Assembly: GCF_000378245.1 (NCBI RefSeq)
Contig: NZ_KB899494.1
Location: forward strand, 124,001-188,000
DNA: 64,000 bases
DNA from: Aromatoleum toluclasticum ATCC 700605
Lineage (GTDB): Bacteria; Pseudomonadota; Gammaproteobacteria; Burkholderiales; Rhodocyclaceae
Direction: 5' to 3'
In this document: in pieces, positions 12,964 through 41,506 of the stretch
Position numbering within the stretch: position 1 is the stretch's first letter
Layout: the number at the start of each line of letters is the position of its first letter
Notes under the pieces: model-generated
Database searches by the model: none
What the model was told of the DNA's origin: nothing
The model's input: only the letters and a program-made list of their open reading frames with translations
Translations under genes and position numbers: made by a program

Positions 12964-14946
12964 ATGTCCGCTCTCCTCAACGCCCCGCAACGCGAAGCGA
13001 TCCGCTATCTCGACGGTCCCAGCCTGGTGCTGGCGGGCGCGGGCAGCGGCAAGACGCGGGTGATCACGCACAAGATCGCGCACCTGATCAACGAGTGCGG
13101 GCTAAACCCGGCCAACATCGCCGCGATCACCTTCACGAACAAGGCGGCGAAGGAGATGCAGGAGCGCGTCGCGGGCCTGATGGGCGGGCGCGTGCCGGGC
13201 GGGCTCACGGTGTGCACCTTCCACGCGCTGGGGGTCAGGATGATCCGCCAGGAGGCGGTGCACTGCGGGCTGAAGCCGCAGTTCTCGATCCTCGATGCGT
13301 CCGACACGGTGCAGATCGTGTCGGACATCTCGCGCGACTCGGACAAGGCGCGCTCCAAGGCGATGCAGTGGCAGCTCTCGGGCTGGAAGAACGCGATGAT
13401 CACGCCCGAGCAGGCGGCGCAGCTCGCCGACGACGAGATCTCGTCGGCCGCGGCGATGCTGTACGCGGAGTACGAGCGCACGCTACGCGCCTATCAGGCG
13501 GTGGATTTCGACGACCTGATCTCGCTGCCGGTGCGGCTCCTCGAAGAGAATCCGGACGTGCGCGAGCGCTGGCAGAACAAGCTGCGCTACCTGCTCGTCG
13601 ATGAGTACCAGGACACGAACAAGGCGCAGTACCGCCTGCTGCGCCAGCTCTCGGGCGTGCGCGGGGCCTTTACCGCGGTGGGCGACGACGATCAGGCGAT
13701 CTACGCGTGGCGTGGCGCGGACGTCGAGAACCTGAAGCTCTTGCAACAGGATTACCCGAAGCTGAAGGTCATCAAGCTGGAGCAGAATTACCGCTCGTCG
13801 CGGCGCATCCTCACCGCGGCGAACACGGTGATCGCGAACAACGAGAAGCTCTTCGAGAAGCAGCTGTGGTCCGAACACGGCGACGGCGAGCAGGTCGCGG
13901 TGACGGCCTGCCGCGATGCGGACCACGAGGCGGAATGGGTCGCGTCGAAGATCAGCGCGCACAAGTTCGAGCACCGCACGAAGTTCTCGGACTACGCGGT
14001 GCTGTACCGCGGCAACCATCAGGCGCGCGTGATCGAGCAGCAGCTGCGCAACCAGAAGATCCCCTACGTGATGTCGGGCGGGCAGTCCTTCTTCGACAAG
14101 GCGGAGATCCGCGACCTTATTTCGTGGCTGCGCCTGCTGATGAACGAGGACGACGATCTCGCCTTCATCCGCGCGATCACGACGCCGCGGCGCGGCGTGG
14201 GTGCGGCGACGATAGAGGCGCTGGGCCAGTATGCGGGGCGGCGCCACGTGAGCTTCTTTGCCGCGGTGTTCGAGGAGGGCGCGGCGCATGCGCTGAATGC
14301 GCGCCAGATGGAGCAGCTGCAGGAGTTCGGCAACTTCATCAACCGCATGCAGTACCGCGCCCACCGCGAGCCGGCGGCGCGCGTGCTGGAAGACCTGCTC
14401 GGGGCGATCCGCTACGAGGCCTGGCTGTTCGAGCACCTCGACACGCGCGAGGCGGAGTCGAAGTGGAGCAACGTGCGCGATTTCGTGAACTGGCTGAGCC
14501 GCAAGGGCGAGGCGGACGGCAAGAACCTGATCGAGCTGACGCAGACGATCGCGCTGATCTCGATGCTGGACAAGGACGACGCCGAGTTCGACGGCGTGCA
14601 GCTCGCGACGCTGCACGCGTCGAAAGGTCTGGAGTTCAAGCACGTGTTCCTCGTCGGCGTCGAGGAAGGCCTGCTGCCGCACCAGTCCTCGATCGACGAG
14701 GACAAGGTGGAGGAGGAGCGGCGCCTGATGTACGTCGGCATCACGCGCGCGCAGCGCACGCTCAACATCACGTGGTGCGAGCGGCGCAAGGCGGGCAAGG
14801 AGACGCGCACCTGCGAGCCGTCGCGCTTCATCGCCGAGATGGGCGGCGACATCAGGATGAGCGACCGCAAGACCAACGCGCCGGTGTCGAAGGAAGAGGG
14901 GCGCGCGCGCATCGCGAACCTGATGGCGATGCTGGAAGGGCGCTGA
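12964..14946 (+). CDS. rep: ATP-dependent DNA helicase Rep (UvrD family SF1A)
   Basis: A 660-residue SF1A helicase, close to E. coli Rep (673). Motif I is LAGAGSGKT (about residues 22-30), motif II LLVDEYQDTN (about 212-221), motif III GDDDQAIYAWRGA (about 240-252), motif IV LEQNYRSS, motif V TLHASKGLEFKHV and motif VI RRLMYVGITRAQRTL. Rep removes proteins ahead of replication forks and helps restart stalled forks. Rep and UvrD are similar; the short overall length and the LLPHQSSID segment favour Rep. Single gene between a REP-like repeat and the ttr locus. Confidence 0.92.
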   Translation: MSALLNAPQREAIRYLDGPSLVLAGAGSGKTRVITHKIAHLINECGLNPANIAAITFTNKAAKEMQERVAGLMGGRVPGGLTVCTFHALGVRMIRQEAVHCGLKPQFSILDASDTVQIVSDISRDSDKARSKAMQWQLSGWKNAMITPEQAAQLADDEISSAAAMLYAEYERTLRAYQAVDFDDLISLPVRLLEENPDVRERWQNKLRYLLVDEYQDTNKAQYRLLRQLSGVRGAFTAVGDDDQAIYAWRGADVENLKLLQQDYPKLKVIKLEQNYRSSRRILTAANTVIANNEKLFEKQLWSEHGDGEQVAVTACRDADHEAEWVASKISAHKFEHRTKFSDYAVLYRGNHQARVIEQQLRNQKIPYVMSGGQSFFDKAEIRDLISWLRLLMNEDDDLAFIRAITTPRRGVGAATIEALGQYAGRRHVSFFAAVFEEGAAHALNARQMEQLQEFGNFINRMQYRAHREPAARVLEDLLGAIRYEAWLFEHLDTREAESKWSNVRDFVNWLSRKGEADGKNLIELTQTIALISMLDKDDAEFDGVQLATLHASKGLEFKHVFLVGVEEGLLPHQSSIDEDKVEEERRLMYVGITRAQRTLNITWCERRKAGKETRTCEPSRFIAEMGGDIRMSDRKTNAPVSKEEGRARIANLMAMLEGR

Positions 14947-30581: not shown

Positions 30582-30658
30582 GCGCCCGTAGCTCAGCTGG
30601 ATAGAGTACTGCCCTCCGAAGGCAGGGGTCGGACGTTCGAATCGTCTCGGGCGCGCCA
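30582..30658 (+). tRNA. tRNA-Arg (anticodon CCG)
   Basis: A 77-base tRNA that folds normally: acceptor GCGCCCG/CGGGCGC, D arm GCTC...GAGT, anticodon stem CTGCC/GGCAG with loop CTCCGAA giving anticodon CCG, T arm GGACG/CGTCT (one G-T pair) with TTCGAAT loop, and an encoded CCA end. It reads CGG arginine codons. It stands alone with its own promoter box and terminator. Downstream DNA is accessory in character, and tRNA genes are common integration sites. Confidence 0.97.
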
Positions 30659-31740: not shown

Positions 31741-34700
31741 TTAAGTCCGCAACACGCTATATCGCCTGAACAAGGCGATCGGCAAGGCCCGCTGCAATCG
31801 CCACGTGATCGACAAAGGCCGATCTCCCTCCCAGCGCTCCAATTCCACTGGTCCCAAGGCACGGTACGCCTGCCCTCGCGCTTCCCGTACGAAAAGCTGG
31901 AACCGCCAGCCATTGTCCGGTGATTCGCAGTAGCGGCGCCCGGCCGTGGTGTCCGGGCCGGCGGCGTTTTGCGATTGCCAGTGGAAGAGCTCGGGGCTGA
32001 TCGCGTAGTCGTGGTAAGCGATGCGTTCGTTAAAACCGTCGCGCTTGTCCAGGGTAACGAAGAGGAGTTCCGTCTTGTGTTGGGGGAGTGCGAGGACGCC
32101 CGCCTGGAACGGGGCGCGGCGTTCCGGCGTGAGCCAGCCGACGGCGGTGAGGATTTCGCGGATCTGGTAGGCGGCATGCAGGGTCAGCGGCCAGGCCGCA
32201 AGGGCGCCGGGGAGAGGCTCCGGGTCGAGCTCGGCGCGCTCGTCCAGGCAGGTGGCGAGCTCACCCAGTTCGCCGGACATGGTGGGGTTGGCCACCATGC
32301 GGGCGAGAAAACTGCGGCCGTCCATCAGCGCGCTGCGATCGCTGAAGAGTTGGTAGGTGAGCATTTGCACGCGGCGCTGCTCGGCGGGTGTGAAGTGCGC
32401 GAGTCGGTCGCTCAGGGATGCGGGGTCTTCGGCGACGAGGCGCAGGATTCTCAGATGCTCGGGGTCGTCGACGTGCAGGAGCGCCCCGAGGTGTTTGCCG
32501 AGGTAAGTCTCGTCGGGATCGGACGGGGACTGTTCGAGGCCGGCGGCGCGGCGTAGTGCGGTCCAGCCCGGCTTGCCGTCGTAGAGGTCTTCGAGGTCCA
32601 GGCACTGGTCGCGCACGAAATCGGCGAGCGTCAGCGGCTGGTCGCGACGGGTGGTGGCGTAGTAGCGCAGTTCGGCGGTGAGGCGGCGCCAGGTCTGCTT
32701 GCTGATCTGGCGCAGGCCGCGGAGCACCTGATCGCGCGCGACGCGGTCGAACTGGATGTGGCAGCCGGGCGGCAGCGTCGTGAAACCCTGTTCGACGGCC
32801 TCGATGAGCTGCTGGCGGTTGAGGCCGGTGATCGATCGGTAAAGGATATCGAAGCGAAAGTCGTCCTGCAGCCGCCCGACGAAGTCCAGCACGAGGCAGC
32901 TTTCCTTGCCGTCAGCCAGCCGCAGGCCACGGCCGAGCTGCTGCTGGAAGACGACCGGGCTCTGGGTGGGGCGCAGCAGCAGCAGGGTGTTGGCTTCCGG
33001 GATGTCGACGCCTTCGTTGTAGAGGTCGACAGTACACAACACCTTCAGCGTGCCGGCCGCGAGGTCGCGCGGGGCGCGCTCGCGTACGTCGCGCGGCGTT
33101 GTGCTGGTGATGGCGAGCGCGGGAAGGCCGGCTCGGGTGAGCCGTTCGGCGGTGAAATTCGCGTGGGCGATATCGACGCAGAATGCGATCGCGCGCATGG
33201 CCACGATGTCGGCGACGTATTGCTCGATGGCGTGGATCACCAGCCGGGCCCGCGCGTCGTTGCCGCTGATGACGTTGGCGAGCTGCGCGAGTTCGCCGGG
33301 CAGGTTCCAGCGGACGCCGGTGAGATCGGTGCTGTCCGTGGTGGCGTAGTACTCGAAAGGGGCGAGCAGTTGCTGGTCCAGCGCGTCCCACAGGCGTAGT
33401 TCCACCGCCGGACTCCCGTCGGGGCGCGCGTCGAAGTACTGCAGCACGGAGCGTCCGTCGGCGCGCTCGGGTGTGGCGGTGAGGCCGAGCAGGAAGCGCG
33501 GGCGGATCCGGCTCGCGAAAGCGTCGAACTGGCTCGCCGGCAGATGGTGGCACTCGTCGATGACAACGGTGTTCCAGTAGTCGGCGCCGTGGCTCGCAAG
33601 CAGGTCGCGAGCGGTGACCGACATGATGGTCGCGAAGAGGTGCTCGCTGCTGTCGGGCCGGCGGCCGTCGGCAAGGAGCTCGCCGAAGGCCGGCGCGCGC
33701 AGCACCTGCCGATAGGTCTCTACGGCCTGCCGCAGCAGCTCGACGCGATGCGCGACGAACAGCAGACGCGGCTTTCCGCCCTGCTGCTCGCACAAGCGCT
33801 TGTAATCGAACGCGGCAACGACGGTCTTGCCGGTGCCGGTGGCGGCGACGACGAGGTTGCGGGTGCGGCCGTGGCGCCGTTCGGCTGCGAGGCGGTCGAG
33901 CATCGCCTGCTGGTAGGTCTTGGGCTGCAGGTCGAACCAGGTGGGTGTGGCGATCTGTTCGGTGCTCGTGCCTTTGGCCTGCTGCAACGCCCGGCGCAGT
34001 TCCCCGCGATGCAGGTCGTCTTGCGGATCGAAGCGTTGGAATTCGGGATCGTTCCACAGCGTTTCGAAATGCGCCTCGGCCGTGGCGAATAGGTTTGCCT
34101 GCCCGGCCTGGGTGAATTTGACGGTCCATTCGACGCCGCCCAGCAGCGCCGCAGCGGAGAGATTGGCGCTGCCGACGAAAGCGGTGCCGAAGCCGGTCGC
34201 GCGGTGAAACAGCCAGGCCTTCGCATGCAGGCGGCTGCGTCGTCCGTCGAGCGAGATGCGTAATTCCACGCCCGGCAGGGCCGCCAGCGTCTCGACTGCA
34301 CGGGCCTCGGTCGCGCCGGTATAGGTGGTCGTGATGACGCGCAGCCGGGTGCGGGGCTCGCCATCGGCGCCGATGGCGGTGACCGATTCGAGTACGTCCA
34401 GGAGTTTTCTGAGCCCGCTCCAGGTGATGAAGCTGATGACGATGTCGACGCGGTCGGCCGACCCGAGCTCGGCGCGCAGTTCAGCGAAAAGGGACGGGTC
34501 GGCGCGGCCGGCGGTGAAGAGCCACGGCGCGAGCACGCCGGTGGGCGGTTGCGTCGGGCGGGGATTACCGCGGTAGATCGAGCGCAGGGCCAACACCGGG
34601 GCGGTCCAGGGCTCGGTCGGTGCATCGCTGCGTCGCCGGTAAGCGCGCAGGTGAGTCATCAGGCCGTTGATAAGGGCGAGTTCGCGCTCTTCGCGTGTCG

Positions 34701-34896
34701 CGTCGTCCTCGGCGTCAGCCGCCTCTTCGAGCAGTTCGGGGAGCAGCCGTGCGAGCACGTCGGTGAGCCGTCGGCGGCGTGCGGCGCCGGTGAGGTGCTC
34801 GACATCGGCCTGACCGGCCTCACTCAGCTGCTGCGCGAGCTCACGGATGCGCTCGTCGACGAGCAGGTCGTAGAGGCCATCGGGAAGGGGGGTCAT
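31741..34896 (-). CDS. PLD-domain / SF2 helicase / DUF3427 protein
   Basis: A 1051-residue protein. An N-terminal helical region (about 1-95) precedes a phospholipase-D-like domain (about 110-285) with one HxK half-motif HAKAWLF (224-230) and GSANL (242-246). Then comes an SF2 helicase: Walker A ATGTGKT (352-358), DECHHL (447-452), LTATPERADG (472-481) and QQLGRGLR (about 673-680). The C-terminal third (about 720-1051) is DUF3427-like. The family is sporadic in bacteria and its function is not established; a nuclease-plus-translocase make-up suits DNA defence or repair. It is followed by hicAB on the same strand and divergent from the EEP gene. Confidence 0.85.
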   Translation of the reverse strand: MTPLPDGLYDLLVDERIRELAQQLSEAGQADVEHLTGAARRRRLTDVLARLLPELLEEAADAEDDATREERELALINGLMTHLRAYRRRSDAPTEPWTAPVLALRSIYRGNPRPTQPPTGVLAPWLFTAGRADPSLFAELRAELGSADRVDIVISFITWSGLRKLLDVLESVTAIGADGEPRTRLRVITTTYTGATEARAVETLAALPGVELRISLDGRRSRLHAKAWLFHRATGFGTAFVGSANLSAAALLGGVEWTVKFTQAGQANLFATAEAHFETLWNDPEFQRFDPQDDLHRGELRRALQQAKGTSTEQIATPTWFDLQPKTYQQAMLDRLAAERRHGRTRNLVVAATGTGKTVVAAFDYKRLCEQQGGKPRLLFVAHRVELLRQAVETYRQVLRAPAFGELLADGRRPDSSEHLFATIMSVTARDLLASHGADYWNTVVIDECHHLPASQFDAFASRIRPRFLLGLTATPERADGRSVLQYFDARPDGSPAVELRLWDALDQQLLAPFEYYATTDSTDLTGVRWNLPGELAQLANVISGNDARARLVIHAIEQYVADIVAMRAIAFCVDIAHANFTAERLTRAGLPALAITSTTPRDVRERAPRDLAAGTLKVLCTVDLYNEGVDIPEANTLLLLRPTQSPVVFQQQLGRGLRLADGKESCLVLDFVGRLQDDFRFDILYRSITGLNRQQLIEAVEQGFTTLPPGCHIQFDRVARDQVLRGLRQISKQTWRRLTAELRYYATTRRDQPLTLADFVRDQCLDLEDLYDGKPGWTALRRAAGLEQSPSDPDETYLGKHLGALLHVDDPEHLRILRLVAEDPASLSDRLAHFTPAEQRRVQMLTYQLFSDRSALMDGRSFLARMVANPTMSGELGELATCLDERAELDPEPLPGALAAWPLTLHAAYQIREILTAVGWLTPERRAPFQAGVLALPQHKTELLFVTLDKRDGFNERIAYHDYAISPELFHWQSQNAAGPDTTAGRRYCESPDNGWRFQLFVREARGQAYRALGPVELERWEGDRPLSITWRLQRALPIALFRRYSVLRT

Positions 34897-35157: not shown

Positions 35158-36117
35158 ATGCACGCCAACTTTTCACTCCTTCGTCACCCGGGGCTGCAAC
35201 GTCGCGCGAAAGCGATTGCGGTGCTGTGCTCTGGTGGCCTGCTTCTTCCGCTCGTCTCCCCCTTCGAGGCCTCGTTGCCCGACTCGATGGCCTGGGGGCT
35301 GGATCTGGCCGTGCACTGGCAGTGGTTCTTCCTTGCCGGGCTGGCTTTGGCCTTGCCGGTTCTGGTCTGCGCCCGGCGGCGATGGTTCATGCTGGCAGCC
35401 CTGCTGCCGCTGCCCTGGTTTACCGCGATGCCGGACGCCGTGCGCGGCGCCGATGGGGGTGACGCGCTGGTGGTTGCCGCCGCCAACGTGCATGTCGATA
35501 ACGAGGCCCCCGATCGGCTGGTGCAGTGGGTCGGGGCGACGAAACCCGACGTGCTCGCGATCCTCGAAATCTCGGACACGTTCGCGCAGCGCCTGGGGCT
35601 CGATGACATCTATCCGTATCGCGTGGTCCGCCCGCGCGGGGATCCCTTCGGCGTCGCGCTGCTGTCGCGTCATCCCGTTCTGCGCCATGTGGTGGTGGAA
35701 GAGGACGGCGCCACGCCCCGGATCGAAGCCGTGCTCGACTGGCACGGCACCGAGGTCACCGTCGTCGCCTTTCATCCGATGCCGCCGATCAGTGCGGCCG
35801 ACCATGGGCAGCGCAACCGGGTGCTGGCGGACATCGCCGCGCGCTATGCAGACCGGCCGACGATCGTCGCAGGCGACTTCAACGCAACGCCCTGGTCGTC
35901 GGCGTTTCGGGCGCCCCGACGCAAGGGCTTTACGGTTGCCAGCGGATTGCAGGCGACGTGGCCGGCGCCGTTACGCGGACTGATCGGCCTTCCGATCGAC
36001 CACGTGATGCTCTCGCGCCACTGGTCCGTCATCGATCGCGCCGTCGGCCCCGATCTCGGTTCGGATCACCTGCCGATCCAGGCCTCCGTTGCGACATCAC
36101 GGAATGTTGGCCGGTGA
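35158..36117 (+). CDS. Membrane-anchored endonuclease/exonuclease/phosphatase (EEP) family protein
   Basis: A 319-residue protein with two to three N-terminal membrane segments (about 17-35, 52-70, 75-92) and a C-terminal EEP catalytic domain (about 103-315). Catalytic positions are visible: AAANVH (Asn110), ILEISD (Glu137), HPMPP, AGDFNATPW (Asp-Asn pair, about 240) and the terminal SDHLPI histidine. The family hydrolyses phosphodiesters in nucleic acids, lipids or nucleotides; the layout resembles E. coli YafD. Substrate is unknown. It lies between two helicase genes, with a 232-base gap to the next, so co-regulation is possible but not shown. Confidence 0.83.
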   Translation: MHANFSLLRHPGLQRRAKAIAVLCSGGLLLPLVSPFEASLPDSMAWGLDLAVHWQWFFLAGLALALPVLVCARRRWFMLAALLPLPWFTAMPDAVRGADGGDALVVAAANVHVDNEAPDRLVQWVGATKPDVLAILEISDTFAQRLGLDDIYPYRVVRPRGDPFGVALLSRHPVLRHVVVEEDGATPRIEAVLDWHGTEVTVVAFHPMPPISAADHGQRNRVLADIAARYADRPTIVAGDFNATPWSSAFRAPRRKGFTVASGLQATWPAPLRGLIGLPIDHVMLSRHWSVIDRAVGPDLGSDHLPIQASVATSRNVGR

Positions 36118-36349: not shown

Positions 36350-39300
36350 ATGGCCGCTCCGCCCGCCGCGCCCCGCGCGCGGTGCCTGTGTCTCGACATC
36401 GAAACCGCTCGCCAGGACCGCATGGCCCTGCGCGAGCTGGGCGTGTTCCGGCCCGATCTGGATGCGCGGCTGAAGATTTCCGGCAAGGATCCAGAACTCG
36501 TTCCCCGGCTCGATGCGCTCACCGCAGGCGCCGCCTTCGTGCTCGGTCACAACGTCGTCGCCTTCGACCAGCCCGCGCTCGCGGCGCTGCATCCGCAACT
36601 CGCGCTGCACCGCCTGCCGCTCATCGACACGCTTGAGCTGTCGCCCGTCGCCTTCCCGCAGAATCCGTATCACCGGCTGGTGAAGGACTACAAGCTGTGC
36701 ACGACGACGCGCAACGACCCGGTGCGGGATGCGGAGCTCGCGTACGAACTCTTCGTCGACCAGAGCGAGGCGCTGCAGCGGCGTGTCGCCGAGAATCCGG
36801 ACGAGGCGCTGTGCCTGCATTTCCTGCTCGCACCGGAGAACGGCAAGGGGGTGGCGAACTTCTTCGCGACGCTGCGCCGGGCGCTCAAGCCCTCGCTCGC
36901 CGAGGCCGCCGTCGCATGGCAGCAGGCGACTGCCGGCAAGGTGTGCATCACCGGGGAGCGCTGGATCGTCGAGCACTGCCTGCCCGATCCGGACTGGCAC
37001 AAGCCGCTGGCGTACGCGCTGGCGTGGCTGCGCGTCGCGGGCGGCAACTCGGTGTTGCCGCCCTGGGTGAGCCTGAGCTTCCCCAGGGCGCGCGAGGCGA
37101 TAGCGATGCTGCGCGATGTTCCCTGCCCGGATCCGGCCTGCGCATGGTGTCGCGAGCAGCACGACATCGAAGCCCTGCTGCCGCGCTACTTCCCCGGCAT
37201 CACGCGCTTTCGCAGCACGCCGACGACCGATGACGGGCGCTCGCTGCAGCAGGCGATCGTCGAGAATGGCTTCGCGGGGCGGCCGACGCTCGCGATCCTG
37301 CCCACCGGCGGCGGCAAGTCGCTGTGCTTCCAGTTGCCGGCGCTCGCGCGCTACTACCGCAACGGCAGCCTGACGGTGGTGATCTCGCCGCTGCAGTCGT
37401 TGATGAAGGACCAGGTCGACAACCTGGAGGCGCGCGGCATCACCTGCGCGGGCTACCTCAACAGCCTGCTCAACCCGATGGAACGGCGCGTGATGCTCGA
37501 CAAGCTGCGCCTGGGCGACCTCGGGCTGATCTTCGTCGCGCCCGAGCAGTTCCGCAGCGTCGCCTTCGCCAACGCGCTGATGCATCGCGAGATCGGCGCC
37601 TGGGTGTTCGACGAGGCGCATTGCCTGTCGAAATGGGGGCACGACTTCCGCCCCGACTATTTGTACGTGTCGCGTTTCATCAAGTCGCGCCAGAAGGACA
37701 AACCCTCGCCAGTGTTCGGCTTCACCGCGACGGCGAAACCGGATGTCGTGGACGACATCTGCCAGCATTTCGAGAAACGCCTCGGCGTCACTCTCGATCG
37801 CCTCGAAGGCGGCGTGAGCCGCGACAACCTCGCCTACGAGGTGCGCGCGGTGCCGGCCGCGACGAAATACGCCGAGACCCTGCACCTGCTGCAGGACGCG
37901 CTGCGCGAGGAAGGCGGCGCGATCGTGTTCTGCGCGCGGCAGAAGACGGTCGAGGAAGTCGCGGATTTCCTCAGGAGCGCCGGCCTCGATTGCGGCTTCT
38001 TCCACGGCGGCATGCTGCCCGCGAGCAAGCGCGACGTGCAGGAAGCCTTCCTCGCCGGCACGCTGCGCGTGATCGCCGCGACCAACGCCTTCGGCATGGG
38101 CGTGGACAAGCCCGACGTGCGCCTCGTGATCCACCTCGACACGCCCGGCTCGCTGGAGAACTACCTGCAGGAAGCGGGCCGCGCCGGGCGCGACCAGTCG
38201 CCGGCGCGCTGCGTCCTGCTCTACGACGACGCCGACCTCGACGTGCAGTTCCGTCTGCTGCGCAACTCGCGCCTCACGCAGCACGACATCGGCGCGATCC
38301 TGAAGGCGCTGCGCGCGATCGAGCGCCGTGACCGCAGCGAAGGCGAGGTGGTCGTCACGAGCGGCGAGATCCTGCTCGAGATCCCTGACGCGCACCGCAT
38401 CGACCCGGACGCGAGCGACGCCGACACCAAGGTGCGCATCGCCGTCGCGTGGCTGGAGGAGGCGCGCCTGCTCGAACGCCACGAGAACCACACGCGCGTC
38501 TTCCCCGGCAGCCTGCTCGTCGCGACCGAGGACGAGGCGCGCGCGATGCTGCGCAACAAGCTCGGGGCGGACGCCGACATCGAGCCCTACGTGCGCATCC
38601 TCGGCATCCTGATCCGCGCCGCCGACGACGAGGGGCTCTCCACCGACGAGCTGATGCTCGCGACCGGCAAGGACTCGCGCACGCTGCAGCACATGCTGCG
38701 CGAGCTCGACCGCTGGAAGCTGCTGTCGAACGACACCGAGATCGGCGTGACCTTCTACCGCGATCCGGACACCGCGCAGCGCCTCGTCGAGCTCGCGCGT
38801 ATCGAGGACGCGCTGCTGAAAAACCTGCGCGAGGCCGCTCCCGACGCGGATGACGAGAGCTGGCAGATCCTCGACGTGCGCCGCCTGTGCGACACGCTGC
38901 GGCGCGACGCCGAGGTCGATTTCGGCCCCGACAGGCTCACGCGCCTGCTGAAATCCTTCGCCGAACCCTTCGGCGAGGGGGCGACGCACCGCGGCTTCTT
39001 CGCGTTGCGCCCGCTCGCCGCGGACCGGCGCTACCTCAGGCTGCTGCGCCCGTGGCAGGACATCGAGACGATCCGCGAACGGCGCATGCGCGTCGCCCGC
39101 GCGCTGGTGCAGGAATTCCAGCGCCGTCGCCAGGGCAACACGCTGCTCGTCACGGCCAAGCAGGGCGAGCTCGAAGCCGCGCTGCAGGCCGACACCACGC
39201 TCGCCGACATCGGCAGCGAAAAATGGGATACCGCCTTGTCCGCGGCGCTGCTCTACCTCGACGCCAACGAGGTGCTGCATCTGGCGCGCGGCAAGGCCGT

Positions 39301-41506
39301 GTTCCGCTCCGCGATGAGCATAGAACTCAACGCCGAGGCGCGCCGCCGCCAGTTCAAGAAGTCCGACTACGCCGAGCTCGCGCTGCACTACAAGGACAAG
39401 ATCGTCCAGGTGCACGTGATGGCCGAGTACGCCAAGCTCTCCCTCCGCAAGATCCAGGCGGCGATGGCCTTCATCGTCGACTACTTCAGCCTCGACCGCG
39501 CCGAGTTCGTGCGCCGCTACTTCGCCGGGCGCAAGGACGTGCTGGAGATGGCGACCACCGAGGCCGCGCACCGCCGCATCCTCACTGACCTCGCCGACCC
39601 CGTTCAGCAGTCCATCGTCGCTACCTCCCTGGAAGGCAACCACCTCGTGCTCGCCGGCCCCGGCGCGGGCAAGACCAGGGTCATCGTGCATCGCGTCGCG
39701 TGGCTGCTGCGCGAATGCATGGTGCTGCCCGAGGCGATCATGGTGCTCGCCTACAACCGCTCCGCCGCCAACGAGATCCGCCGCCGCCTGTGGGCGCTGG
39801 TCGGCGCGGACGCCGCCGGTGTCGCGGTGCAGACGCTGCACGGGCTCGCGATGCGCATCACCGGCACCAGCTACGCCGTCGCCATCGAGCGCGGCGAGGC
39901 GGTCGATTTCGGCGAAGTCATCCGCGAGGCGACCCGCTGCCTGCGCGCCGCCGAGCAGGACCAGAATGTCGGCGACGGCGTCGGCCCCTCCATCGTCCGC
40001 GACCGCCTGCTCGCCGGCCTGCGCTTCCTTCTCGTCGACGAATACCAGGACATCAACGGCGACCATTACGAACTCGTCAGCGCCGTCGCCGGCCGCACGC
40101 TGCAGACCGAGGAAGACCGCGTCTCGCTGATGGTGGTCGGCGACGACGACCAGAACATCTACGCCTTCGACGGCGCCAGCGTGCGCTACATCCGCCAGTT
40201 CGAAACCGACTACGCCGCGCGCCGCTACGCGCTGGTCGAGAACTACCGCTCGACGAAACACATCATCCACGCCGCTAACCGCGTGATCGAACGCGCCCGC
40301 GAGCGCATGAAGGCCGGACAGGCGATCCGCGTGAACCACGCGCGGCGCGATCAACCGGATGGCGGCGAGCAGGCGGCGCTCGATCCCCTCGCCGAAGGCC
40401 GCGTGCACGTGCTCGAAGTGCCGCGCAACCCGCATCAGGAAGTGCAGGTCGCGCTCGACGAACTGCAGCGCCTGCACGCCCTGATCGCGCAGGACGGCGA
40501 CGCGGGGCAATGGGGCCACTTCGCCGTCATCGCCCGCCGCTGGGAAGACCTCGAACCGATGGCCGCGCTATGCCGCCTGCGCGGCATCCCCGTGCGCCTG
40601 CTGCGCGACGGCGCCAGCGTCGGCCTGCACCAGACGCGCGAAGGCGACGCCCTTGCGACCCTGCTGCGTGGCCTGCGACGCAGCGCCCGGCGCCGCCGCG
40701 TGCTGCTCCGCTCGGGCGTCCTGTCGCGCTGGTTCCGCCGCCGCTTCCACGCCTCGCCCGACGGCCTCATCGCCCACCCCCAGCGCGCCGCGCTCGCGCA
40801 GTTCATCGCCGATGCCGAATCCGCTGCGCCGGGCCGCCAGCTAGTCATCGACGACCTCCTCGAAGCCCTCTACGACTTCGGCGCCATCGGCAAGCCCGCC
40901 GCCGACGCCCGCCCCAATGCCCCGTTGGTGCTGATGACCGCCCACCGCGCCAAGGGCCAGGAATTCGACCACGTGCTGGTCCTAGATGGCGGCGGCTGGC
41001 AGGGACGCGGCGACGACGAGCGGCGGCTCTTCTACGTCGCGATGACGCGGGCGCGCAAGTCCCTGACGTTGTGCGAGGCGGTGGGCGGGACGCAGCCCTT
41101 CGTGCGCGATCTCGACGGGCTGGCGTTGCGTTCGCGGCCGGATGCGCTGCCGTCCGAGCCGGGTGTTGCCCATCGGATCTGGTGCGCGGACCTGGAGAAG
41201 ATCGTGCTGTCGTGGCCGGGGCATTTCGCGCCCTCGGCGCCGATTCACCGCGCGCTGACGGCGCTCGACGTCGGCGATCCGCTGGTGCTGCGGCCGCGCA
41301 GTGATGATGGCGCAAAGTGGGAGATCGTCGATGCCTCGGGCGTGACAGTGGGCCGGATGTCGTCGAAATTTCACCCGTCACCGGGCGCGACCGTTGCCGT
41401 ACGAGTCGCGGCGGTGCTGGTGCGTCATGCCAGGGACGACGAACAGGGCGTGCGCTGTCGAGCATGGGAACTGGTGCTGCCGGAAATCGAGTACGCGCCG
41501 GCATAG
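36350..41506 (+). CDS. DnaQ-like exonuclease / RecQ helicase / UvrD helicase triple fusion
   Basis: A 1718-residue protein from the ATG at 36350 (a TTG 6 bases upstream is possible). Residues 10-135 look like a DEDD 3'-5' exonuclease: CLDIET (Asp16, Glu18), GHNVVAFD (Asp73), VRDAELAYEL (Asp127). A small cysteine cluster CPDPACAWC (259-267) follows. Residues about 285-640 form a RecQ-type SF2 helicase: LPTGGGKSLCFQ, FDEAHCLSKWGHDFRP, FTATA, QEAGRAGRD. After a long linker (about 640-1085) comes a UvrD-type SF1 helicase: GPGAGKT (about 1105), LLVDEYQD (about 1226), GDDDQNIYAFDGA, ENYRST, TAHRAKGQEFDHV and FYVAMTRARKSL. Two translocases plus an exonuclease in one chain suggest a DNA-unwinding/degrading or repair machine. 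Confidence 0.9.
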   Translation: MAAPPAAPRARCLCLDIETARQDRMALRELGVFRPDLDARLKISGKDPELVPRLDALTAGAAFVLGHNVVAFDQPALAALHPQLALHRLPLIDTLELSPVAFPQNPYHRLVKDYKLCTTTRNDPVRDAELAYELFVDQSEALQRRVAENPDEALCLHFLLAPENGKGVANFFATLRRALKPSLAEAAVAWQQATAGKVCITGERWIVEHCLPDPDWHKPLAYALAWLRVAGGNSVLPPWVSLSFPRAREAIAMLRDVPCPDPACAWCREQHDIEALLPRYFPGITRFRSTPTTDDGRSLQQAIVENGFAGRPTLAILPTGGGKSLCFQLPALARYYRNGSLTVVISPLQSLMKDQVDNLEARGITCAGYLNSLLNPMERRVMLDKLRLGDLGLIFVAPEQFRSVAFANALMHREIGAWVFDEAHCLSKWGHDFRPDYLYVSRFIKSRQKDKPSPVFGFTATAKPDVVDDICQHFEKRLGVTLDRLEGGVSRDNLAYEVRAVPAATKYAETLHLLQDALREEGGAIVFCARQKTVEEVADFLRSAGLDCGFFHGGMLPASKRDVQEAFLAGTLRVIAATNAFGMGVDKPDVRLVIHLDTPGSLENYLQEAGRAGRDQSPARCVLLYDDADLDVQFRLLRNSRLTQHDIGAILKALRAIERRDRSEGEVVVTSGEILLEIPDAHRIDPDASDADTKVRIAVAWLEEARLLERHENHTRVFPGSLLVATEDEARAMLRNKLGADADIEPYVRILGILIRAADDEGLSTDELMLATGKDSRTLQHMLRELDRWKLLSNDTEIGVTFYRDPDTAQRLVELARIEDALLKNLREAAPDADDESWQILDVRRLCDTLRRDAEVDFGPDRLTRLLKSFAEPFGEGATHRGFFALRPLAADRRYLRLLRPWQDIETIRERRMRVARALVQEFQRRRQGNTLLVTAKQGELEAALQADTTLADIGSEKWDTALSAALLYLDANEVLHLARGKAVFRSAMSIELNAEARRRQFKKSDYAELALHYKDKIVQVHVMAEYAKLSLRKIQAAMAFIVDYFSLDRAEFVRRYFAGRKDVLEMATTEAAHRRILTDLADPVQQSIVATSLEGNHLVLAGPGAGKTRVIVHRVAWLLRECMVLPEAIMVLAYNRSAANEIRRRLWALVGADAAGVAVQTLHGLAMRITGTSYAVAIERGEAVDFGEVIREATRCLRAAEQDQNVGDGVGPSIVRDRLLAGLRFLLVDEYQDINGDHYELVSAVAGRTLQTEEDRVSLMVVGDDDQNIYAFDGASVRYIRQFETDYAARRYALVENYRSTKHIIHAANRVIERARERMKAGQAIRVNHARRDQPDGGEQAALDPLAEGRVHVLEVPRNPHQEVQVALDELQRLHALIAQDGDAGQWGHFAVIARRWEDLEPMAALCRLRGIPVRLLRDGASVGLHQTREGDALATLLRGLRRSARRRRVLLRSGVLSRWFRRRFHASPDGLIAHPQRAALAQFIADAESAAPGRQLVIDDLLEALYDFGAIGKPAADARPNAPLVLMTAHRAKGQEFDHVLVLDGGGWQGRGDDERRLFYVAMTRARKSLTLCEAVGGTQPFVRDLDGLALRSRPDALPSEPGVAHRIWCADLEKIVLSWPGHFAPSAPIHRALTALDVGDPLVLRPRSDDGAKWEIVDASGVTVGRMSSKFHPSPGATVAVRVAAVLVRHARDDEQGVRCRAWELVLPEIEYAPA

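What the first reader, a model, noticed from the sequence alone, without database searches (positions are those of the whole stretch)
36350..41506. Triple fusion of DnaQ-like exonuclease, RecQ helicase and UvrD helicase in one 1718-residue chain
One protein joins an SF2 3'-5' helicase of the RecQ type, an SF1 UvrD/Rep-type helicase and an apparent DEDD exonuclease, with all core motifs visible in each part, plus a small Cys cluster between the exonuclease and RecQ parts. In well-known systems these activities are separate polypeptides (RecQ, UvrD, RecJ/ExoX). The fusion suggests a self-contained DNA unwinding/degrading or fork-processing machine. The genome already has an ordinary rep gene at 12964, so this is not a housekeeping substitute.
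Basis: partly seen in the sequence, partly recalled or inferred. Interest (0 to 1): 0.75.

Follow-up and report, generated by a model that had tools for sequence, protein, structure and literature searches.

The report
Mobile exonuclease–RecQ–UvrD triple-fusion protein
A single very large bacterial protein joins a DNA-chewing enzyme to two different DNA-unwinding motors; it is scattered across many bacteria, often near known anti-virus genes, so it may be an uncharacterised one-gene system that attacks foreign or damaged DNA, although this has not been tested.

Summary
Window 36350-41506 (+) is one 1718-residue ORF: DEDD/DnaQ-type exonuclease (~10-135), linker with a Cys cluster (259-267), RecQ-type SF2 core (298-640), a winged-helix-like middle (641-1075), UvrD/Rep-type SF1 helicase (1076-1580) and a small C-terminal domain. 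It is no local accident: relatives with the same architecture occur in several proteobacterial classes, Campylobacterota, Bacteroidota, Cyanobacteriota, Deinococcota and a Riflebacteria MAG, at 26-90% identity. The helicase residues checked and the four exonuclease acids are kept in 56-59 of 59 sequences. The usual fifth exonuclease residue (His/Tyr) is Asn in 55 of 59 and never His or Tyr. The exonuclease is under as strong purifying selection as the RecQ core.
Distribution is patchy (6 intact copies in 17 genomes of the genus; strong hits, fragments included, in 19 of 121 of the family and 16 of 398 of the phylum), fits repeated transfer, and several copies are broken. It often lies near restriction-modification, toxin or candidate defence genes, in the window near a type IV-restriction-like PLD helicase and a tRNA-Arg. 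Best reading: a single-gene helicase-nuclease, probably defensive, working like Hna or exonuclease-DinG but a member of neither. Function is untested.

The parts
36350..41506 (+). whole gene, exonuclease-RecQ-winged-helix-UvrD fusion, 1718 aa
36377..36754 (+). DEDD/DnaQ-type exonuclease domain, residues ~10-135; D16, E18, D73, D127; invariant D93 and K112; N122 at the His position
36755..37240 (+). helical linker, residues 136-297, with a conserved stretch around W226-V240
37124..37162 (+). Cys cluster C259-x4-C264-x2-C267 followed by H271 (His in 33 of 59); possible metal site
37241..38269 (+). RecQ-type SF2 helicase core, residues 298-640 (K323, D421/E422, R611/R614)
38270..39574 (+). middle region, residues 641-1075, predicted row of winged-helix-like units; no RecQ Zn, RQC or HRDC match in Pfam
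   Evidence: moderate-confidence model
39575..41089 (+). UvrD/Rep-type SF1 helicase, residues 1076-1580 (K1108, D1230/E1231, R1300, R1567)
41090..41503 (+). C-terminal domain, residues 1581-1718, no Pfam match, the least constrained part
31741..34896 (-). neighbour: 1051-aa PLD + ResIII helicase + DUF3427 protein, PADLOC mREase_IV E 4e-213; context, not a proven partner
35158..36117 (+). neighbour: endonuclease/exonuclease/phosphatase family protein; context
30582..30658 (+). tRNA-Arg(CCG) at the left edge of the variable block that holds the fusion

Best explanation
It is a stand-alone, horizontally spreading helicase-nuclease whose likely job is attacking foreign (phage or plasmid) replicating or recombining DNA. 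Inferred mechanism: the winged-helix-like middle and Cys-cluster linker hold a fork, gap or 3'-tailed structure; the RecQ and UvrD motors, both of 3'-5' families, open the duplex, possibly on opposite strands so that both sides of a gap or fork are pulled apart; the DEDD domain digests the exposed 3' ends. Destroying 3' ends would remove primers and recombination tails. Shown here: domain content, conservation, purifying selection on every part, the three-part architecture across phyla, a patchy distribution that fits transfer, and defence or mobile context at many loci. Inferred: enzyme activities, polarity, substrate, trigger and the defence role.
For: Architecture and active sites kept in 59 proteins (near-duplicates left out): K323, D421, E422, R611, R614, K1108, D1230, E1231, R1300 in 59 of 59; R1567 58; D16 58, E18 56, D73 59, D127 58. 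Of 34 genomes with strong exonuclease-profile hits, 29 have it in a frame of at least 1600 aa (in one, G502, the first part is displaced), 3 are cut by contig ends and 2 are decayed fragments; the RecQ and UvrD parts were checked by BLAST in 22 of the 34. Patchy: in 17 genomes of the genus 6 intact, 1 interrupted, 1 internally deleted, 9 without; 19 of 121 in the family; 16 of 398 in the phylum. The tree forces at least 4 label changes for 14 family rows. Context: type III RM ending about 50 bases before the fusion's frame (L252), type II RM and serine recombinases (L251), type I RM genes within 1 kb (L101, L207), CRISPR I-D 4.3 kb away (L102), PDC-M21B/C (L144), C5-methylase-HNH 2.1 kb upstream (L141), PDC-S05 2 kb away (L206), HipA, BrnT or VapC genes 1-8 kb away (L104, L105, L106, L153). 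PADLOC at E <= 1e-20: 143 models hit by 109 neighbour proteins against 10 by 110 control proteins from the same 14 genomes (caveat below). Analogy: Hna and DinG join a helicase and a 3'-5' exonuclease in one chain (PMC13381803, PMC12525004; abstracts and passages).
Against: No activity or phage-resistance data. The PADLOC model count overstates the effect: one protein can hit tens of models (31 at E <= 1e-15 for one L206 protein), and a BLAST check with 24 query proteins confirmed only 4 of 109 neighbours against 0 of 110 controls, two of the four being queries themselves. Controls were arbitrary positions, not matched accessory regions. No partner family is conserved. Several loci have no plain defence gene nearby (L103, L107, L108). 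The structure match is weak by E-value and TM-score. The canonical His/Tyr is missing, and L040 and L044 have Gly for E18, so the exonuclease may be weak or non-catalytic in some. A 199-aa plasmid ORF (L155) matches the exonuclease domain alone. GC of the gene equals its surroundings. Repair genes can also move horizontally.
Confidence: 0.5

Rival explanations
1. An accessory DNA-repair or replication-restart enzyme (WRN-, DinG- or MrfAB-like) that spreads horizontally because it helps under DNA damage; the exonuclease trims 3' flaps or stalled ends while RecQ and UvrD clear the fork.
For: The parts resemble repair enzymes; B. subtilis DinG is implicated in overcoming replication stress (PMC12525004, abstract and passages); MrfA/MrfB is a helicase/exonuclease pair in nucleotide excision repair (PMC12458937, passages), in a helicase family that also serves defence systems. 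Strong purifying selection. Some loci lack defence neighbours.
Against: Patchy even between two genomes of one genus, several copies broken, and often near restriction-modification, toxin or recombinase genes.
Confidence: 0.27
2. A maintenance or competition gene of mobile elements themselves (plasmids, integrative elements) that processes the element's own replication or conjugation intermediates or blocks rivals.
For: 22 and 25 of 72,556 plasmid records match the exonuclease domain in two searches; next to ParA/ParB and replication genes in Aliarcobacter and 2.5-6 kb from SSB and ParA genes in Bacteroides; near serine recombinases in IMG/VR contigs.
Against: Many copies lie on multi-megabase chromosomes (for example G002, G012, G123, G537), though I did not examine whether those sit inside integrated elements; no partner family is conserved; no full-length copy found in 50,697 phage records.
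Confidence: 0.13
3. The exonuclease domain is a non-catalytic nucleic-acid-binding module; the protein is a double helicase only.
For: His/Tyr missing in all 59, E18 lost in 2 (L040, L044), D127 read as Cys in one alignment row (L254).
Against: Four metal-binding acids otherwise kept in 56-59 of 59; D93 and K112 invariant; dN/dS 0.066-0.116, equal to the RecQ core.
Confidence: 0.1

Closest known systems
WRN (Werner syndrome helicase-exonuclease)
   Same: 3'-5' exonuclease and RecQ helicase in one chain (WRN chains are among the hits to the RecQ part)
   Different: eukaryotic; RQC and HRDC domains, a Tyr-type exonuclease and no UvrD part (recalled)
Exonuclease-DinG (S. aureus, B. subtilis)
   Same: DEDD exonuclease with an SF2 helicase; first Foldseek hit of the exonuclease model
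   Different: XPD-like rather than RecQ helicase (PMC12525004, abstract), no UvrD part
Hna anti-phage protein
   Same: single gene, SF2 helicase plus 3'-5' ssDNA exonuclease, broadly distributed (PMC13381803, abstract and passages)
   Different: 845 aa, DinG-like helicase, C-terminal PD-(D/E)XK nuclease
DpdF of the Dpd system
   Same: RecQ-like helicase core; best PADLOC match of the RecQ part (E 1e-107)
   Different: far below the NCBIfam cut-off (171.6 of 550 bits); part of a multi-gene system (recalled); matches only the RecQ part
MrfAB
   Same: helicase and 3'-5' exonuclease acting together (PMC12458937, passages)
   Different: two genes; YprA-type helicase; repair role

Membership tests
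RecQ helicase family | RecQ-type SF2 helicase core | tested here: met
   TIGR00614 294 bits against cut-off 219.8
RecQ helicase family | RecQ zinc-binding, RQC and HRDC domains of bacterial RecQ | tested here: not met
   no such Pfam match at E <= 0.001; TIGR01389 332 of 640 bits, match ends at profile position 347 of 591
UvrD/Rep SF1 helicases | UvrD N and C core domains with SF1 motifs | tested here: met
   PF00580 133.5 bits and PF13361 55.4 bits, both above cut-off; residues 58-59 of 59
UvrD/Rep SF1 helicases | score of a named equivalog (UvrD, Rep, PcrA) | tested here: not met
   110-159 bits against cut-offs of 911-1168
DEDD (DnaQ-like) exonucleases | four acidic metal-binding residues | tested here: met
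   58, 56, 59 and 58 of 59
DEDD (DnaQ-like) exonucleases | RNase H-like exonuclease fold | tested here: met
   model pLDDT 87; Foldseek ranks 1-29 are DEDD-exonuclease-bearing chains, best E 2.5e-3 and low TM-scores; profile hits in PDB. Met, but by weak scores
DEDD (DnaQ-like) exonucleases | fifth residue His (DEDDh) or Tyr (DEDDy) | tested here: not met
   position 122: N 55, S 2, A 1, K 1 of 59; the alignment puts N122 on a His of the nuclease
DEDD (DnaQ-like) exonucleases | 3'-5' exonuclease activity | not testable with these tools
   no experiment
Hna | C-terminal PD-(D/E)XK nuclease on a DinG-like helicase | tested here: not met
   no Pfam match in the C-terminal 141 aa; helicases are RecQ and UvrD; Hna anatomy from PMC13381803 passages
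DpdF | NCBIfam DpdF equivalog score | tested here: not met
   171.6 bits against 550
exonuclease-DinG | XPD/DinG-type SF2 helicase | tested here: not met
   RecQ-type core; no DinG model among the families shown (25 of 45 NCBIfam families were printed)
anti-phage defence systems | protects a host against phage | not testable with these tools
   context only

The most novel reading that the evidence does not exclude
A previously unnamed, cross-phylum family of one-gene immunity proteins in which a DEDD-fold nuclease with a non-canonical active site (Asn for His/Tyr, with an invariant Lys112 and near-invariant His108 as possible replacements) is fused to two 3'-5' motors of different superfamilies, opening foreign replication forks in both directions and destroying their 3' ends.
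Probability: 0.3. Interest if true: 0.8.

Novelty: new variant of a known kind. Interest (0 to 1): 0.56.

Why it matters
Where annotated, these proteins are named only after one helicase part ('RecQ family ATP-dependent DNA helicase', less often RecQ, DEAD/DEAH or UvrD helicase), hiding a distinct architecture spread over many phyla. If defensive, it adds a single-gene helicase-nuclease with two motors to the anti-phage repertoire; if a repair factor, it is a bacterial counterpart of the WRN exonuclease-RecQ arrangement. Either way it makes testable how a DEDD fold without its His/Tyr works, and why two motors of the same expected polarity are kept in one chain.

Tried and rejected
Rejected: chance or frameshift artefact (same architecture in distant relatives, dN/dS 0.106-0.183 over the whole protein against seven relatives). 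Rejected: the PLD helicase as an obligate partner. It lies within 1.2-3.2 kb in G006, G012, G015, G016 and the window, but upstream of the fusion in the window and downstream in the others; it was not seen in the 34 kb fetched around the G002 copy; and among the loci searched (L021-L048, L101-L109, L111-L124, L137-L152) the only hits apart from this close group (L028, L029, L144, L145, L151, L152) were 26% (L030) and 37% (A. evansii, L031/L146). Rejected: membership of DpdF, Hna or DinG (see Membership tests).

Led nowhere: Pfam on residues 1-297 (none for the window; 7 families, each matched by 1 or 2 of 19 members, the best at E 0.0045, among them DNA_pol_B_exo1 in 2 and RNase_H_2 in 1); Foldseek on the middle region (RPC62, OCCM; no hit at E <= 0.001), whose model has pTM 0.54; neighbour clustering, where no family covered more than 8 locus groups and the largest clusters look like chains of multi-domain proteins (genes were called by a greedy longest-ORF script that can include spurious ORFs). 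Empty site: in G005 and G009 the two flanks lie far apart on one contig, in G007 and G014 on different large contigs; for the other five of nine genomes it cannot be told. The genus search gives an open frame of 2227 aa for the interrupted G006 copy, but direct reading shows two frames separated by stops; I follow the direct reading. A whole-genome survey of other phyla was not possible. Literature: searches listed no paper that I recognised as describing this fusion; the library lacks most subscription journals and bioRxiv, supplements could not be read, and apart from the papers named here I saw only listings, so this is not proof of absence. PMC13092281 was searched for RecQ, UvrD, helicase, exonuclease and DnaQ, PMC10799925 for RecQ, UvrD and DnaQ, with no occurrence in the main text.
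Full report
What is there. The window (genus Aromatoleum by inference: the same-genus genomes G003, G015 and G016 have contigs with exactly the lengths of A. evansii, A. toluvorans and A. tolulyticum records) holds one uninterrupted gene at 36350-41506 on the + strand, 1718 residues. Pfam assigns a DEAD/Helicase_C pair at 298-615 and UvrD domains within 1086-1574. NCBIfam places the first helicase in the RecQ family (TIGR00614, 294 bits over a cut-off of 219.8) but far below the bacterial RecQ equivalog, and the second far below the UvrD, Rep and PcrA equivalogs. The genome has a separate full-length rep-like gene at 12964-14946 (894 bits, cut-off 951) and a separate RecQ-like gene.

The N-terminal domain. 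Pfam sees nothing in residues 1-297. A profile of 19 diverse relatives finds solved nucleases in the PDB (9mrc, labelled exodeoxyribonuclease III, E 1.2e-5; DinG 8zef 6.5e-4; T7 polymerase 0.011). In whole genomes its weak hits (E 1e-7 to 6e-4) lie in frames of 84-760 aa; the two I read look, by eye, like a DnaQ-type domain behind a sensor protein (L135) and a DNA polymerase with an exonuclease (L126). AlphaFold2 gives a confident model (pLDDT 87.1, pTM 0.81; low around 110-117). Foldseek ranks 1-29 are DEDD-exonuclease-bearing chains: S. aureus DinG first (probability 1.00, E 2.5e-3), then T7 polymerase, PolC and QIP; later ranks mix such enzymes with unrelated proteins. No hit reaches E 0.001 and TM-scores by query are at most 0.36 in the rows shown. 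In 59 proteins D16 is kept in 58 (one gap), E18 in 56 (Gly in two, one gap), D73 in 59 and D127 in 58. The residue aligned with a His of the nuclease is Asn122 in 55, Ser in 2, Ala in 1, Lys in 1, never His or Tyr. D93 and K112 are invariant and H108 is kept in 56. I propose H108 or K112 as possible replacements; this is inference, and that loop is the least certain part of the model.

Is the exonuclease still used? Pairwise dN/dS against seven relatives is 0.066-0.116 for the exonuclease, 0.066-0.152 for the RecQ core, 0.129-0.208 for UvrD and 0.169-0.377 for the C-terminal domain. The exonuclease is therefore about as constrained as the RecQ core, which argues against simple decay.

The middle and the Cys cluster. 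Residues 641-1075 have no significant Pfam match. The model (pLDDT 77, pTM 0.54) shows repeated helix-strand units that I read as winged-helix-like; Foldseek (RPC62, OCCM) and a profile search (SloR and other metal-dependent regulators, E 0.002-0.009) point the same way but weakly. The RecQ zinc, RQC and HRDC domains were not found. C259, C264 and C267 are kept in 55, 55 and 56 of 59; the Nostoc, Pseudanabaena and Deinococcus rows lack all three, and the Aliarcobacter row lacks two.

Distribution. Plasmids add Allochromatium, Thiothrix, Paracoccus, Croceicoccus, Rhizobium, Microvirga, Cereibacter, Sulfitobacter, several cyanobacteria, Bacteroides, Phocaeicola and Deinococcus and Aliarcobacter (26% identity). 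The exonuclease-domain query hits 22 of 72,556 plasmid records and, with a Bacteroides query, 25. It hits 0 of 50,697 phage records; the whole protein hits 45, none over 80% of its length, and in the 10 rows listed over the RecQ part. Ten IMG/VR contigs carry the gene, eight with frames of at least 1581 aa and two cut by contig ends. With the exonuclease profile, 25 of 398 phylum genomes match at E <= 0.001, of which 16 strongly (E < 1e-30; 15 in frames of at least 1487 aa, one decayed); in the family 82 of 121 match, of which 19 strongly. I take the weak matches to be other DEDD enzymes; I read two. Over the 34 distinct genomes with strong hits, 29 have frames of at least 1600 aa, 3 (G195, G465, G470) are cut by contig ends and 2 (G145, G454) are fragments; G502, among the 29, has its first part displaced. 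In 22 of the 34 BLAST confirms the helicase parts. One exception to the fusion: a 199-aa ORF on a Sulfurospirillum plasmid (L155) matches the exonuclease domain alone, a fragment or a separate gene. In the window's genus, 17 genomes: 6 intact, 1 (G006) interrupted by about 1.4 kb, 1 (G003) with an internal deletion, 9 without. Two genomes of one genus often differ: G533/G484, G537/G490, G534/G485 and G532/G483.

Transfer. A tree of 51 proteins puts 14 rows labelled as the window's family (my label, including Thauera and Zoogloea, which the tree tool lists as Zoogloeaceae) in several places; it needs 6 label changes and starred branches force at least 4. The window's protein is 69-72% identical to those of Methylomonas and Allochromatium (Gammaproteobacteria) but 42-48% to 11 of 12 family loci outside its genus (G537 is 84%). 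Support is SH-aLRT only, and long branches (Deinococcus, Aliarcobacter, Riflebacteria) are unsure. GC content is that of the surroundings, so composition gives no sign of recent arrival.

Context. In the window the gene lies in a block (about 30.7-41.9 kb) that differs between same-genus genomes and begins just after a tRNA-Arg gene. The block also holds a PLD-ResIII-DUF3427 protein matching PADLOC mREase_IV at E 4e-213, found near the fusion in four other genomes. In G012 the fusion is followed by PDC-M21B and PDC-M21C candidates, and G015 has the same three-gene order; in G002 a C5-methylase-HNH protein lies 2.1 kb upstream. Elsewhere: type I restriction-modification (Allochromatium L101; L207), type I-D CRISPR 4.3 kb away (Thiothrix L102), type III restriction-modification ending about 50 bases before the fusion's frame (L252) and type II plus serine recombinases (L251), HipA, BrnT and VapC genes 1-12 kb away (L104, L105, L106, L153, L154, L158), viperin 4 kb away (Nostoc ATCC 53789, whose copy is split by an IS1634 transposase gene). 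Not every locus fits: Microvirga, Nostoc C052 and Bacteroides show no plain defence neighbour, and L159 and L160 have no annotation.

Controlled test. I used 14 genomes with both a case locus and a 20-kb control stretch. I had asked for 20 controls: 3 did not exist and 3 were too short and were dropped, with their case loci; G471 and G525 are of one genus. Of 109 neighbour proteins within 5 kb, members hit 143 PADLOC models at E <= 1e-20; of 110 control proteins, 10 models. This exaggerates the effect because one protein can hit many models, and the output gives no count of distinct proteins. A BLAST check with 24 query proteins found 4 of 109 against 0 of 110, two of the four being queries themselves. 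The direction is consistent; the size is uncertain. Control positions were arbitrary, so the test shows location in defence-rich variable DNA rather than function.

Mechanism. RecQ and UvrD motors move 3'-5' on single strands and DEDD exonucleases digest 3' ends (established knowledge, recalled). Two motors of the same polarity on opposite strands would pull a fork or gap apart in both directions; on one strand they would work in series. The winged-helix-like middle is a plausible DNA clamp. The nearest working comparisons are Hna, a single-gene 3'-5' ssDNA exonuclease held inactive by ATP and stimulated by a phage SSB (PMC13381803, abstract and passages), and B. subtilis DinG, a DEDD exonuclease-helicase whose D10A E12A mutant loses nuclease activity (PMC12525004, abstract and passages). 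D16/E18 here correspond to D10/E12 by motif.

Verdict. The fusion is real, widespread, conserved and patchily distributed. I favour a defensive helicase-nuclease at 0.5, a mobile repair enzyme at 0.27, an element-maintenance gene at 0.13 and a non-catalytic exonuclease at 0.1. It is a new variant of a known kind (helicase-nuclease proteins) and is filed under no named system. Checking this report changed several counts and wordings but not these odds.

Noticed in passing
window 31741-34896 (-): PLD + ResIII helicase + DUF3427 protein matching PADLOC type IV restriction (mREase_IV); lies upstream of the fusion here but downstream in G006, G012, G015, G016
   Followed up: partly
L044 and L040 (Comamonas badia and a proteobacterial MAG): The ExoI motif DxE reads DxG, so one metal-binding residue is lost while the rest of the protein is kept
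   Followed up: partly
L145 7719-14312 (G006), L146 7924-10578 (G003), L209 (G502), L157 11971-18716 (Nostoc ATCC 53789): Copies broken by an insertion, an internal deletion, a displaced first part and an IS1634 transposase gene: this gene decays often
   Followed up: partly
L144 1373-3485 (G012) and L151 6863-8975 (G015): Three-gene set between fusion and PLD helicase; in G012 two genes match PADLOC candidates PDC-M21B (AbiEii-like) and PDC-M21C (PP2C-like)
   Followed up: partly
L252 1697-7932: Type III restriction-modification pair ending about 50 bases before the fusion's frame in an IMG/VR contig
   Followed up: yes
L155 13968-14567 (Sulfurospirillum plasmid): 199-aa ORF matching the exonuclease domain alone, beside AbiEii, restriction and toxin-antitoxin genes; fragment or separate gene
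   Followed up: no
L048 7082-14244 (Phormidium): Related RecQ and UvrD parts over two overlapping frames, with about 950 residues of unassigned sequence in front of the RecQ part
   Followed up: no
L253, L108 and L160: Bacteroides, Phocaeicola and an IMG/VR contig carry the fusion near some of the same genes, suggesting one Bacteroidales mobile element
   Followed up: no
L135 1321-3192 (G000:C10): Sensor-like protein with a C-terminal DnaQ-like exonuclease domain (by eye), a weak profile hit in the window's genome
   Followed up: no
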